This document shows, piece after piece, positions 11,188 through 61,123 of a stretch of 64,000 nt of DNA (its first letter is position 1; each line of letters begins with the position of its first letter). Source of the DNA: Halocaridina rubra (lineage: Eukaryota; Arthropoda; Malacostraca; Decapoda; Atyidae). The DNA lies in contig JAXCGZ010009446.1 of the NCBI GenBank assembly GCA_037179515.1, positions 202,501 to 266,500 of the forward strand, read 5' to 3'. Under the pieces are notes generated by a model. It worked only from the letters and a program-made list of their open reading frames with translations. It was not told where the DNA came from and searched no databases. The position numbers and the translations under genes were made by a program.

Positions 11188-11338
11188 ATGTCTGAAAAAG
11201 TTGAAGATCTGTCTTCTGAGACGGAGATGCTGCTGGAAAAAAAGAAAAAAGAAACTCTGAAGAAAAACAGCATCTCCAAGCAAAATGGCGGAAGCATGTC
11301 CGAGACAGAGCGAAGAAAATATGAAAAGTATCTTGAAG
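11188..11338 (+). CDS. SDR gene exon 1 (N-terminal leader, residues 1-50)
   Basis: The ATG at 11188 has an in-frame TGA at 11173-11175 just upstream, so the reading frame starts here if the exon is coding. It encodes a lysine/glutamate-rich, probably helical leader beginning MSEKVEDLSSETEMLL and ends at a good donor, CTTGAAG|GTGAGAAG, in phase 1. That phase matches exon 2. SDR16C proteins do not usually carry such a leader. Translation might instead start at M54 in exon 2, which would make this exon 5' UTR. This is the least certain exon of the gene. Confidence 0.6.
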
Positions 11339-11568
11339 GTGAGAAGTACCGTAGTGAAAATGACGCCGTGAAAACGTATTGATTTACATTTTCCTGCATT
11401 CAGAATTAGTTAATGTGAAGATTTTTTTCTCATTCATAGCAAAACCATCATTCATAGCAATAAAAACTAGTTGTAATAGCATAATCAAATATACTCGAAA
11501 AAGTTTATCATTTTTATTTGGTAATGCTACTTAATGATGAAGAGATATGGCGCTGCATAGGTAGCTGC

Positions 11569-11670
11569 TATTATTATTATTATTATTATTATTATTATTA
11601 TTATTATTATTATTATTATTATTATTATTATTATTATTATTATTATTATTATTATTATTATTATTATTAA
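11569..11670. repeat. (TTA)n microsatellite in intron 1
   Basis: About 34 uninterrupted ATT/TTA units, about 230 bp after the exon 1 donor. Confidence 0.97.
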
Positions 11671-11944
11671 ATATAAAACCATGTTTGAAAATTGTTGATT
11701 TCTATATCACATTAATATGTGAGATCTTGAACACATTTTGAACGAAGTAGTTAAGGTGCCTGAGTCTTGCTGAACTTCTTGTGTAAGACTCAGGCCCTTC
11801 ACCCTAGATATTTCCAGGTGATTAATACCATTATATTGCATAAATCCTTTATGAGTCTCTAGGATTTGCGATTGACCTTCATTTGCATGTAATCTTGCAC
11901 AGTCTGATGACATGAAATTATCAAAAGTAATTGATAGATTATCG

Positions 11945-12030
11945 TATTTTTTTTCTTCGTGCCCAGGTCCAATGGGGACAATTTTCTTTGCCTGTCCTGG
12001 TGTCACACTCTTAAAAAAAAAAAAGACGAG
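11945..12030 (+). repeat. 3'-tail-only fragment of the jockey/BS-like LINE
   Basis: Reads tcttcgtgcccaggtcca, then ttttctttgcctgtcctgg and gtgtcacact, ending in an A-rich tail. This is the reverse complement of the LINE terminus at 5829-5900. Only the last tens of bases are present. Confidence 0.65.
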
Positions 12031-12131
12031 ATCCCGATTGGTATATATCAGCAGGGGCTCCTTCCCCAGCTTCTTGATTATTAGTGTGTGCCCCACTCAT
12101 ACATTCATCACTGATATGTTTTGTTATTTAG

Positions 12132-12217
12132 ATAATAATAATAATAATAATAATAATAATAATAATAATAATAATAATAATAATAATAATAATAATAATA
12201 ATAATAATAATAATAAT
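12132..12217. repeat. (AAT)n microsatellite just before exon 2
   Basis: About 28 units ending 31 bp upstream of the exon 2 acceptor junction. Confidence 0.97.
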
Positions 12218-57178: not shown

Positions 57179-57225
57179 TGCACTCAGGTGTCTTGTACTG
57201 TAGCCACTGCTTACTTCAATTTCAG

Positions 57226-57340
57226 GGATTACTGAAGCATTGGCCGAAGAGTTGCGCACAAACAGACGATCTGGTGTGTGCATCACTGCTGTTCACCCTT
57301 TTCTGATCTCCAACATAGATGATGTAAAACCAAACCTCAA
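57226..57340 (+). CDS. SDR gene exon 7 (substrate-loop region, residues 253-290)
   Basis: Acceptor CTTCAATTTCAG|GGATTA, donor CCTCAA|GTATGT, phase 1 in and phase 2 out. It encodes GITEALAEELRTNRR, then GVCITAVHPFLISNID. The helix after the YxxxK motif and the strand ending in the P-F-L-I loop that closes over cofactor and substrate are recognisable. The Thr often found after this proline in the family is not obvious here (LISNID). Confidence 0.92.
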
Positions 57341-59022
57341 GTATGTAAGCTTGTTCCATGGATAGTTTTCAATGAGCTACTAAATATTGGATTCATAACC
57401 TATATTTTCTTCTTACATATTGGTTTTCTCCCGCCAGTGTCAGAAAGGTCACCACACCTAAAGGAGAAAATCTGCACAACTTCAAAATTGAAACTCATGT
57501 CCATCTCTCTCATCATAACATTCGGTGACCATTAAATTTATGCATGTCACATATAGTGAACAAATTAGTCATTGGCGATTATATAAATCCTTCGGCAGTA
57601 CATATGTACGTATATTGGAAATTGCAAGATATTGCATTTCTCGGTAATTGCTAACTGATGTTTGTTGTTATCTCATTGCTGCTGAGTTACGTAGATTGTG
57701 CCAGCATTTGACTGAATTGTTGGGAATGATTTTGCCAAGATTATTACCTATATTCCGAGTTCCCAAGAAAATAAACCTCTCAACATTACTAAAATGAATA
57801 CATTTTTGGAGTCTTTCCTTCATATTAGAAGATTAATTTTACTGCTAAAGCATCACAACATATCTCCAGTTTGAAATTTCTTTTTATATAGCAGTTCAAA
57901 AAAGACAACTTTGACTTGTATAGGAAAAACATATGATTTCAAGGAATTTTTGTATATACTGTACTTATTATTGTAACTGATTTGTCTCAAACGATCCGTA
58001 TGTGTGCTAAGCTCTCATATATTATTTTTATAATTTGGACTTTTAACCTGAGATTTCAACTGAAAAGTATTGTTTCTGGGCACACATGAGTGTGCTCAGG
58101 TAATGGTCTTCAAAATGCTATTATTGTCACTGTAGTAATAGTGGTATTAAAAGTGCCAACATATCTTTATTAGGCTCAAGACTGCAATGCGTGTTATTGG
58201 GTAGCAATGTATTTCTATTAGAAACTCTACAATTAGAAGTCACAGTTTAAATCACTTTTTTGCAGGCTGTAAGAAAATACATTTGACTGTAAAAATAATA
58301 AATAATCAAAATTCAATAAGTGAGGAAAATTATAGTACTAATTGTATTCATAGCTTTAAAGAAAGAAATATCACTGAAACAAAACACCAACTCAATGGAG
58401 GGCGCTGCAATCAGTCTCCTTTTGCGCACAATAAGGAAAGTAATAACAGAAGACTACCCAGTAATAATGAAATCTACAGGATATGACAACATTGAATGAA
58501 AAGCGTGATATAATACATAACATTAGTCATTTTGATAGGGTCCCATTGGTAATTAATCAAGAAATGACTACCGTTTATTACTGCTGTAAATGGAAATATT
58601 AAGGAATTAAAGGGATATGATATACTAATATATTATATAATTGAGGTCATTATAATACACATCAGTCGATATATTGGGTGTCTGTCAAGCTTTAAAGTCC
58701 ATTAAAAACCCTGATATTAAAGAAGATGAGATTCATGTCAGAGATAAAATGCAATGATGAAAAGTATTATGCAACCTGCTATGATAAGCATCTGTAATTA
58801 ACATCAATTCTTTACAAAGTGACGGGGGATAAGTGGAGAAACCTGAGGACTAGGTATGGCATTAAGCATTTGCATGGCCTTGCTTAATATTACAGCTTGC
58901 CTTTATATGACTGTATGTATCATTTTTAAACAAAATGTCAAATCTCGTAGAGCTCACTAGAGACTACGAGTGTCCCAAAAGATGTAAGGAATAAATAATA
59001 TACCTATACTTTTGCTTTGCAG
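57341..59022. other. Intron 7
   Basis: AT-rich; no embedded gene seen. A faint family A LINE 3' region may lie at about 58220-58390 (the phrases 'cacagtttaaatcacttttt', 'gtaagaaaatac' and 'catagctttaaagaaag' echo the ORF2 C-terminus). Confidence 0.4.
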
Positions 59023-59148
59023 ATTCCCTTGGTTATTTGAGATTCTTGAGCCATCTGATGCTGCTTGCAGGATTATACGGGGTGTGAGAAGAAATGAAGA
59101 AGAAATTTTCTTGCCTGAGAAACTCAAGCCATTAATGGTCTTCTCCAA
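59023..59148 (+). CDS. SDR gene exon 8 (C-terminal region, residues 291-332)
   Basis: Acceptor CTTTTGCTTTGCAG|ATTCCC, donor CTCCAA|GTAAGC, phase 2 in and out. It encodes the SDR16C-type C-terminal block FPWLFEILEP, then AACRIIRGVRRNEEEIFLPE. This block resembles the family pattern of a helix with repeated R/E residues followed by a proline-containing amphipathic segment. Confidence 0.92.
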
Positions 59149-61071
59149 GTAAGCTATTCACAACCAAATGAAAAAAAAGATCATATGTAGCCATTGGATA
59201 TGAAACTCATTATTAAATGCCCATTACAGAATTATTGTTATCTTTACTTTTTTTAAATGGTGGAAAGGAATTGCTGTAGGAGAAGTTGTGAAGTCAGATG
59301 CTTCAATAACATGAGGATAAGAGTTTGAGATGTACGGGAGCAGGAAATTTGATTTGAAAGAGTGGAACTAATACGACTTAGCTAGTTGGACTTCTAAAAA
59401 GAATTAACAGCTATGAAAATGTGAAGAGGACGTGTGGGTAGGGTTTACCAGGTATTCAACAAAATTTTGCATAAAGAGGTTCTTAATATAATTGCGGAGG
59501 GTTGGTAAGGGAAGAGAATGGTTTGGGAGACAGGTTAGTTGAATGTTTAGACTCTTGAGGTACAATATTTTCTTTTTATAGCACACTTGAAAAACTTTCA
59601 GGAGAATGTACATTTACGTCACTCTCTTCTTTTCTGACTGCAGTGAGTGCATGTCACTTGGCCATTAGAGATTAAAAAGGGTATTGCCTATAACCCTCTT
59701 TCTTTGCATTTAGGTTTACCAAGCAATCCTTGTTTCCTCTTTTCCTTGCCACATGTTTATCAGTTATGCCCTAAATCTCTATCTCACCCAATATTATAGA
59801 ATCATCTAACTCGTCTTTTCATACCCTTTAAAAGTAACTAAGTATGTGAAAAGACTTCCTACCTACACTATTCATTTCAATATACATCTAACGACATTAT
59901 GAATTACTCCTTTACCTTGCTCCTGGTATGATTTGATTTTTTCCTTGCAAAACAACAAAAGAAATTGTGTATGTGATATATAAATAGTTTTAGTAGTCAT
60001 ATTAGTGCAGGGAAATGATCCTTTATGTTAAAATATTATTTTTATATTCAATTTTTGGTAAAACTATATCACTGCAGTTTTCTTTAATGGAAAATTTTAA
60101 AGGAAGATAGGGGAGGAATGAACCAGCAGTCCATCTGACCCAGTTTACTTGTATTATTGTTTTACTGAGGTAAGAAAAAATATGATGATAAGATTGTTGA
60201 AATGAAACCCTTTTGTCATAATTAATTGTCCTAGTTATGGTCTTTCTGCCAGATATGAGCCGTTAATTTGAAATAAATTCACTGGTGGTAGTGGTGGGAA
60301 AAGAATATCTCTCGTGTGCCCTACATGTCGTAATAATCAAGAAATAAGCAAATCCTTCGTGGTGTGGGTATATTATATCATCCTTGTGTACCCTGTGTTA
60401 CAGGTGACTAAAAAAATAAGGAAGTTGGGAATTGGTAAATTCTCCAAACTCGCAATTTCTTGCCACAGAATACCTGATAAAACAGTTGAAGTCATGCTGG
60501 GTATGAGGAAGTTCTGCTACCTAACTATTATATCATCCTGCTAACTATGGTGGCGTATAATATCATATGTCAGTCCTTTGTCGATGACTTTAATTATTTA
60601 GGCTGTCTCAATTAGGCATAAAACTTTTCGTGTTTTCCAGACTTCATCCTTTTGCCATTCTTCTTCAATAAATATTGCCTTCTCCTGCCATTCAGCAGGG
60701 TGGTTACAACCAAAGGAAAAAGTTAAATTTTCTACAATCGAAATAATACTTGTTTTCACCTTTCTAATTCAGATAAATTAACTCCTAGTAACACTAATGA
60801 CAGTGAACAAGATCAAGCCTTGAGCCTTGAGGTATGTCTTATTTTTTTCAACATCATTCCATATCCATATGATGCTAGTGCGTTGGCAAAAAATGAAACA
60901 AAGGAGGAGGAGGAGGAATAAATGTAGATTATTATTTATGTTCCAGCAACTTTTTTGCTATCCATCTCCTCGAAGGATAGCTACTGCAAAATTGTTTGGA
61001 TTTTGAAATGGCATAACCCTTTCTATGTATGAAACTTCTACTTTATTAGTAATACTTTATTATCTTTTCAG
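59149..61071. other. Intron 8
   Basis: AT-rich; no additional exon, RNA gene or clear mobile element seen. Confidence 0.5.
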
Positions 61072-61123
61072 GGTACTTCCAAGAAAGCTACGCAGGCTCT
61101 TTGGTGATTATATGGAAGCTTAA
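61072..61123 (+). CDS. SDR gene exon 9 (C-terminus and stop, residues 333-349)
   Basis: The acceptor is TTATCTTTTCAG|GGTACT. The phase-2 codon is completed to Lys333 and the exon reads VLPRKLRRLFGDYMEA, then TAA at 61121-61123. The LP-x-K pattern is typical of SDR16C C-termini. No alternative exon is needed between exon 8 and this one. Confidence 0.88.

What the first reader, a model, noticed from the sequence alone, without database searches (positions are those of the whole stretch)
11188..61123. A complete SDR16C-type dehydrogenase gene of about 50 kb, only 2% coding, hidden among repeats
Nine short exons join by sight with consistent phases and every classical SDR catalytic residue (N203, S231, Y244, K248). 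None is long enough to stand out among the repeat frames, so automatic annotation could miss or fragment this gene.
Basis: partly seen in the sequence, partly recalled or inferred. Interest (0 to 1): 0.75.

Follow-up and report, generated by a model that had tools for sequence, protein, structure and literature searches.

The report
Shrimp lipid-alcohol dehydrogenase gene, already annotated
This is a real, ordinary enzyme gene of a small Hawaiian shrimp, stretched to 50 kb by repeat-filled introns; databases already hold its protein except the first few dozen residues, and its one mildly odd feature is a swapped residue in the cofactor-binding loop that its crustacean relatives share.

Summary
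Nine exons (11188-61123, + strand) join with GT/AG sites and matching phases into exactly 349 residues, with N203, S231, Y244 and K248 in place; 1,050 of 49,936 bases (2.1%) are coding. 'Likely missed' is wrong: residues 54-349 are already deposited as Halocaridina rubra 'hypothetical protein SK128_007944' (296 aa, identical, contig of the same 275,836 bases). Only residues 1-53 (exon 1 and the start of exon 2) are absent there; 3 of 12 relatives' N-termini support them clearly. Seven of eight junctions are gapless in 15 of 15 crustacean relatives, and a compact paralogue in the same genome repeats exons of 90, 108, 132 and 130 bases. The product is an SDR16C-like dehydrogenase, probably membrane-anchored and NAD-dependent; nearest solved structures are HSD17B13 and HSD17B11. 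It lies on a crustacean branch apart from vertebrate RDHE2. The cofactor motif reads TGAGQNLG: the middle Gly is Asn in 23 of 23 branch rows with the region and in none of 186 other SDRs. Substrate, location and the effect of that Asn are untested. Interest is low.

The parts
11188..11338 (+). Exon 1: residues 1-50, hydrophilic lysine-rich N-terminal extension; absent from the deposited protein
   Evidence: ATG after an in-frame stop, donor AAG|GTGAGA; relatives P0002, P0003 and P0014 score above 500 of 500 shuffles
12249..12394 (+). Exon 2: residues 51-99, hydrophobic membrane anchor; holds Met54 where the deposited 296-aa protein starts
   Evidence: AF2 helix 39-85
13708..13797 (+). Exon 3: residues 100-129, cofactor motif TGAGQNLG and strand 2 with D126; a (TTA)n microsatellite runs up to its acceptor
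   Evidence: missing exactly in Procambarus isoform P0018
27775..27882 (+). Exon 4: residues 130-165
   Evidence: junctions gapless in 15 of 15 relatives
43358..43489 (+). Exon 5: residues 166-209, NNAG motif and catalytic N203
   Evidence: missing exactly in P0021, P0022, P0023
49148..49277 (+). Exon 6: residues 210-252, catalytic S231, Y244, K248 (YCASK)
57226..57340 (+). Exon 7: residues 253-290
59023..59148 (+). Exon 8: residues 291-332, C-terminal helices
61072..61123 (+). Exon 9: residues 333-349 (VLPRKLRRLFGDYMEA) and stop
   Evidence: 82% identical in P0002
44408..49084 (-). LTR retrotransposon (RT, RNase H, integrase domains) filling 4,677 of the 5,658 bases of intron 5; 182-base LTRs 99% alike, CATTT on both flanks; ends 63 bases before exon 6
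30059..32881 (+). Non-LTR retrotransposon ORF (endonuclease + reverse transcriptase, 940 aa open frame) in intron 4

Best explanation
A functional nuclear gene of the anchialine shrimp Halocaridina rubra encoding a membrane-anchored SDR16C-like dehydrogenase. Shown: exon structure, fold family, catalytic tetrad, relatives, no second close copy found. Inferred: a hydrophobic N-terminal helix (about residues 54-86) and the C-terminal helices hold the enzyme on the cytosolic face of the ER or a lipid droplet. NAD(H) binds the Rossmann fold (D126 at the end of strand 2 favours NAD over NADP; family knowledge). The N203-S231-Y244-K248 tetrad moves hydride between NAD and a lipophilic alcohol or aldehyde (retinoid, steroid or other lipid). 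The gene is long because retroelements and microsatellites fill its introns, not because of any special mechanism. It belongs to a distinct eumalacostracan branch marked by Asn in place of the middle Gly of TGxxxGxG, and relatives suggest that alternative first exons swap the stretch before the anchor.
For: Exon joining. Deposited identical protein from a contig of the same 275,836 bases. Junctions 2/3 to 8/9 gapless in 15 of 15 relatives; deposited proteins of relatives missing exactly exon 3, exon 5 or exons 3+4. Exon 1 matched in 3 of 12 N-termini tested at 0 of 500 shuffles. Own-genome search: 13 matches, 8 on this contig, the other 5 at 31-46% identity. Paralogue on C8425 has exons 3-6 of the same length, so the same phases, with small introns. 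Pfam adh_short. HSD17B13/11 best by sequence and by fold. Trees. In the branch's 25 rows D126 is kept in 23 of 23 with letters, N203 in 22 of 22, S231 in 25 of 25, Y244 in 24 of 25, K248 in 23 of 24 (the misses are one garbled row, P0014). Role of N-terminal helix and C-terminal helix-turn-helix in lipid-droplet anchoring of HSD17B13: passages of PMC10449848.
Against: No transcript of H. rubra itself was examined; splicing evidence comes from relatives, a paralogue and the deposited protein. The middle Gly of the cofactor motif is Asn, so normal NAD binding cannot be taken for granted. Exon 1: 9 of 12 N-termini tested did not beat all shuffles, among them Palaemon P0004 (85 of 500 as high); the tblastn match of P0002 (E 1.8e-6) was made without low-complexity filter and composition correction, and with them it shrinks to 13 residues at E 0.49; P0003 by tblastn reaches only E 2.2. 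The AF2 model is modest (mean pLDDT 79.1) and below 50 at 232-239, just after S231. Substrate and location are untested.
Confidence: 0.87

Rival explanations
1. The true product is the deposited 296-aa form only; the 50-residue exon 1 is a chance open frame or belongs to an untranslated leader.
For: Deposited protein starts at Met54. Macrobrachium rosenbergii isoform X2 (P0005) and the unnamed P0013 also start at this Met. 9 of 12 relatives' N-termini do not beat all shuffles. Exon 1 is lysine-rich, and with low-complexity filtering its tblastn match is not significant (E 0.49).
Against: P0002 aligns end to end with exon 1 and no shuffle of the same letters reaches it (0 of 500, z 11.6); P0003 (z 6.7) and P0014 (z 4.6) also 0 of 500; the 53 residues tested include three of exon 2. 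P0003 is P0005 plus 48 residues, so long and short forms exist for one protein.
Confidence: 0.12
2. A catalytically dead SDR: the Gly-to-Asn change abolishes cofactor binding, and the protein now only scaffolds on lipid droplets.
For: Asn at a position that is Gly in 93 of 94 other SDR16C-type rows and 92 of 92 bacterial or metagenomic SDRs with the region.
Against: Tetrad and D126 remain conserved across the branch; the change is shared by 16 named species, not a recent loss in one; no stop or frameshift in any exon.
Confidence: 0.07
3. A pseudogene or a mosaic of unrelated exons rather than one working gene.
For: Introns are full of retroelements.
Against: Nine exons with intact splice sites and phases, no second close copy found, junctions shared with relatives.
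Confidence: 0.01

Closest known systems
Decapod 'epidermal retinol dehydrogenase 2-like' proteins and H. rubra SK128_007944
   Same: Same gene and its direct relatives; SK128_007944 is 100% identical over residues 54-349, full-length relatives 58-77%; same junction positions
   Different: SK128_007944 lacks residues 1-53; N-termini before the anchor differ between species and isoforms
HSD17B13 (8g9v, 8g93) and HSD17B11 (1yb1), i.e. SDR16C3 and SDR16C2 (numbers recalled)
   Same: Fold, strand-2 Asp, catalytic Ser/Tyr/Lys, N-terminal hydrophobic helix, C-terminal helices
   Different: 31-34% identity; TGAGHGIG versus TGAGQNLG; extra charged N-terminal extension; different branch of the tree
SDR16C5 / RDHE2 epidermal retinol dehydrogenase 2
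   Same: Name transferred to the decapod proteins; same superfamily and tetrad
   Different: Not a one-to-one orthologue: vertebrate SDR16C5 groups with vertebrate HSD17B11/13 (99/90), apart from the crustacean branch
Paralogue on G000:C8425 (L023)
   Same: Same genome; exons 3-6 of identical length
   Different: Canonical TGTGHGIG motif; 43-53% identity in exons 3, 5 and 6; exons 3-8 within about 3.3 kb against 45 kb here

Membership tests
Classical short-chain dehydrogenases/reductases (PF00106) | Profile match over the Rossmann core | tested here: met
   149.5 bits, cut-off 26.6, residues 96-279
Classical short-chain dehydrogenases/reductases (PF00106) | Catalytic tetrad N-S-Y-K | tested here: met
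   N203, S231, Y244, K248, conserved in the branch; SDR16C listed as a tetrad family in PMC9859523 (passage)
Classical short-chain dehydrogenases/reductases (PF00106) | Cofactor motif TGxxxGxG | tested here: not met
   TGAGQNLG: first and last Gly kept, middle Gly is Asn106. Hence 'SDR16C-like variant branch', not a textbook member
SDR16C | Groups with named SDR16C proteins rather than bacterial SDRs | tested here: met
   Animal set split from 3 bacterial rows at 100/100. Weak test: no other animal SDR family was in the tree, and where the crustacean branch attaches is unresolved (48/90)
SDR16C | N-terminal hydrophobic anchor and C-terminal helices | tested here: met
   Residues 66-86 mean hydropathy 2.07; AF2 helices 39-85, 323-332, 337-348; anchoring itself not shown
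SDR16C | Shared splice sites | tested here: inconclusive
   Only against the own-genome paralogue, where exons 3-6 agree in length. The vertebrate splice tables of PMC9859523 are in supplements, not read
SDR16C5 / RDHE2 orthologue | Tree position with vertebrate SDR16C5 | tested here: not met
   Separate branch with P0025, 100/100
SDR16C5 / RDHE2 orthologue | NAD-dependent all-trans-retinol oxidation | not testable with these tools
   Needs an enzyme assay

The most novel reading that the evidence does not exclude
A eumalacostracan-specific SDR16C-like enzyme whose cofactor loop was rebuilt around Asn instead of the middle Gly, changing its cofactor handling, and whose alternative first exons switch the stretch before the membrane anchor between charged and uncharged forms. 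This would route one enzyme to the ER bilayer or to lipid droplets. The charge logic comes from HSD11B1 versus HSD17B13 in PMC10449848 (passage); Cherax has three different N-termini joined at the same point.
Probability: 0.2. Interest if true: 0.45.

Novelty: new member of a known kind. Interest (0 to 1): 0.2.

Why it matters
As a gene it matters little: it is expected, conserved and nearly fully deposited. It supplies a probable missing first exon for SK128_007944 and shows that names such as 'epidermal retinol dehydrogenase 2-like' across decapods come from similarity, not one-to-one orthology. The Gly-to-Asn change, fixed in the rows seen, in an otherwise almost invariant cofactor motif is a small, clean biochemical question. 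It may bear on retinoid or lipid-alcohol metabolism in crustaceans: a crayfish transcript named Sdr16c5 is listed among retinoid-pathway transcripts of nerve cord and eyestalk (PMC8626408, passages); whether it is of this branch was not checked.

Tried and rejected
Rejected: pseudogene (intact frames and splice sites); duplication elsewhere in the assembly (no second close copy among 13 matches, a search that scores only the best candidates); one-to-one orthology to RDHE2; the idea that annotation had missed the gene.

Led nowhere: a search for further first exons in 30 kb upstream plus the window start, with 12 relatives' N-termini, found only pieces of the known exons 1 and 2 among weak chance hits. 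Rfam (gathering scores) and tRNA scans of the window were empty. The homologue search with mammal SDR16C5 listed 120 of 4,783 hits, and the named ones were all mammals. A 30-residue motif search of the PDB matched 129 sequences, 60 listed; the five alignments shown all have Gly at the middle position, the others were not looked at. A first junction count gave 0 of 15 gapless at three junctions (1/2, 7/8, 8/9) because the large alignment carried inserted columns; it was redone on the crustacean rows alone, which gave 9, 15 and 15. For the paralogue's exon 4 one printed row began three bases late (105 bases); the acceptor at 3720 in the same listing gives 108.

Papers: the exact string GAGQNLG occurs in no paper of the library; 'SDR16C' with 'crustacean' gave two, 'epidermal retinol dehydrogenase 2' with 'shrimp' two, 'retinol dehydrogenase' with 'decapod' and 'short-chain dehydrogenase' two, 'TGxxxGxG' with 'SDR16C' one, 'SDR16C' with 'invertebrate', 'retinol dehydrogenase' and 'evolution' five. 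From these I saw listings, and passages of PMC8626408 and PMC9859523; no description of this branch's motif was seen. Most subscription papers are not held. Two searches for an H. rubra genome paper showed none by title (20 of 48 listed; 10 of 10).

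Full report
Observation. A recalled human SDR16C5 probe touched eight of the nine exons (not exon 1), exons 7 and 9 only at chance-level E-values (5.8 and 10) among many chance hits; splice sites were read from the sequence. The join gives 1,050 coding bases and 349 residues, ending at 61123. All introns are GT...AG; exons are 52-151 bases and introns 910 to 15,475 bases.

Where it is. The window is G000:C8094:202501-266500, on a contig of 275,836 bases. The best homologue is a 296-residue H. rubra protein, SK128_007944, from a contig of the same length, letter-identical to residues 54-349. The species is therefore the atyid shrimp Halocaridina rubra (lineage). I saw the deposited protein, not the deposited gene record; an identical protein implies the same splices for exons 2-9.

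Is exon 1 real? An in-frame stop precedes its ATG, and its donor joins exon 2 in phase. P0002, from an unnamed 1,468-base contig, matches all of it (tblastn E 1.8e-6, 44%, no filter); with low-complexity filter and composition correction only 13 residues remain at E 0.49. A shuffle test keeps the letter make-up and is the fairer measure: 3 of 12 relatives' N-termini (P0002 z 11.6, P0003 z 6.7, P0014 z 4.6) scored above all 500 shuffles; P0006, P0011, P0021 and P0016 were reached by 7, 14, 16 and 23 of 500; the other five (P0004, P0007, P0008, P0009, P0012) showed nothing. The 53 residues tested include three of exon 2. P0003 is identical to M. rosenbergii isoform X2 (P0005) plus 48 N-terminal residues, so long and short forms coexist. 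In Cherax three different N-termini (P0012, P0021, P0022) join at the same point before the anchor. Alternative first exons are the simplest reading; this is inference from deposited proteins.

Are the other junctions right? In 15 relatives, junctions 2/3 to 8/9 are gapless in 15 of 15 with mean identity 56-91% over the 12 residues around them; the 1/2 junction is gapless in 9 of 15, mean identity 30%. The 15 were picked from 25 branch rows: P0001 (this gene) and P0005 (contained in P0003) were left out, and eight exon-skipped or defective rows (P0014, P0018, P0020-P0024, P0026) were aligned but not counted. Of these, P0018 lacks exactly residues 100-129, P0021, P0022 and P0023 lack 166-209, and P0024 lacks 100-165, that is exon 3, exon 5 and exons 3+4. 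A paralogue in the same genome (C8425) has exons of 90, 108, 132 and 130 bases for exons 3-6, with GT and AG at their edges. Its exons 3 to 8 fit in about 3.3 kb; here they take 45 kb.

Why so long? Intron 5 is largely filled by an LTR retrotransposon: 44408-49084, LTRs 182 bases and 99% alike, CATTT on both flanks, RT, RNase H and integrase domains. Intron 4 holds a non-LTR element with a 940-residue open frame. Perfect short-unit arrays of 20 bases or more cover 3,182 of 49,936 bases. No full repeat masking was done.

What it is. Pfam adh_short scores 149.5 bits. By sequence the best solved structures are HSD17B13 and HSD17B11; by fold they are the top 21 chains (on an AF2 model of mean pLDDT 79.1). 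The enzyme mechanism follows from the family: NAD binds the Rossmann fold, Tyr244 acts as general base helped by Lys248, Ser231 and Asn203, and hydride passes between a lipophilic alcohol and NAD. This is established family knowledge, not a test here. Membrane anchoring by N-terminal helix and C-terminal helix-turn-helix is described for HSD17B13 in PMC10449848 (passages only); the corresponding stretches are hydrophobic or helical here.

What is unusual. The cofactor motif is TGAGQNLG. Among 25 branch rows (P0001-P0026 without P0025), 23 have the region and all 23 carry Asn at position 106; 2 lack it by exon skipping. Nineteen of the 23 rows are named, from 16 species of shrimps, prawns, crabs, crayfish, lobsters, krill and mantis shrimp; 4 (P0002, P0003, P0013, P0017) are unnamed and counted by their place in the tree. 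Of 94 other SDR16C-type rows (P0025, P0027, five mammal SDR16C5 rows and all 87 new rows), 93 have Gly and one, P0025, has Ser. Of 93 bacterial or metagenomic hits, 92 have the region and all 92 have Gly. Several rows are isoforms of one gene, so rows are not independent. With the motif columns removed, 47 chosen rows give one clade of the 12 Asn rows (93/94 support) that joins P0025 at 100/100, apart from the vertebrate HSD17B11/13 and SDR16C5 rows, which group together (99/90); where the crustacean branch attaches among animals is not resolved (48/90). A first quick tree of 67 rows agreed (SH-aLRT 95 for 16 Asn rows, 100 with P0025). Other SDRs with a non-Gly residue there exist as far as I recall; none was checked.

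Judgement. A correct and careful observation of an ordinary, conserved gene whose protein is nearly all deposited. The added value is the probable first exon, the corrected family placement and the conserved Asn. Interest 0.2.

Noticed in passing
44408-49084: Apparently young LTR retrotransposon: 182-base LTRs 99% alike, 5-base flanks CATTT, ending 63 bases before the exon 6 acceptor.
   Followed up: partly
16001-20000 and 52001-56000: Two blocks of strong G-over-C skew (0.48 and 0.38) inside introns 3 and 6; perhaps copies of one element, not compared. Two ORFs at 51815-52844 had no Pfam match.
   Followed up: partly
13506-13706: A 200-base (TTA)n microsatellite ends right at the exon 3 acceptor and so stands in for its T-rich tract; its length could vary between individuals and might affect exon 3 inclusion.
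   Followed up: no
P0014 (Macrobrachium nipponense) and P0020 (Chionoecetes opilio): Deposited proteins with garbled stretches (the YCASK region in P0014, the anchor in P0020) that look like frame errors in the models.
   Followed up: no
P0016, P0023, P0024 (Penaeus) and P0017 (unnamed): Penaeids seem to carry a second gene of the same Asn-motif branch, named '17-beta-hydroxysteroid dehydrogenase 13-like' in part.
   Followed up: no
L023:3493-6763: Compact canonical SDR16C-type paralogue on contig C8425 with matching exon lengths.
   Followed up: partly
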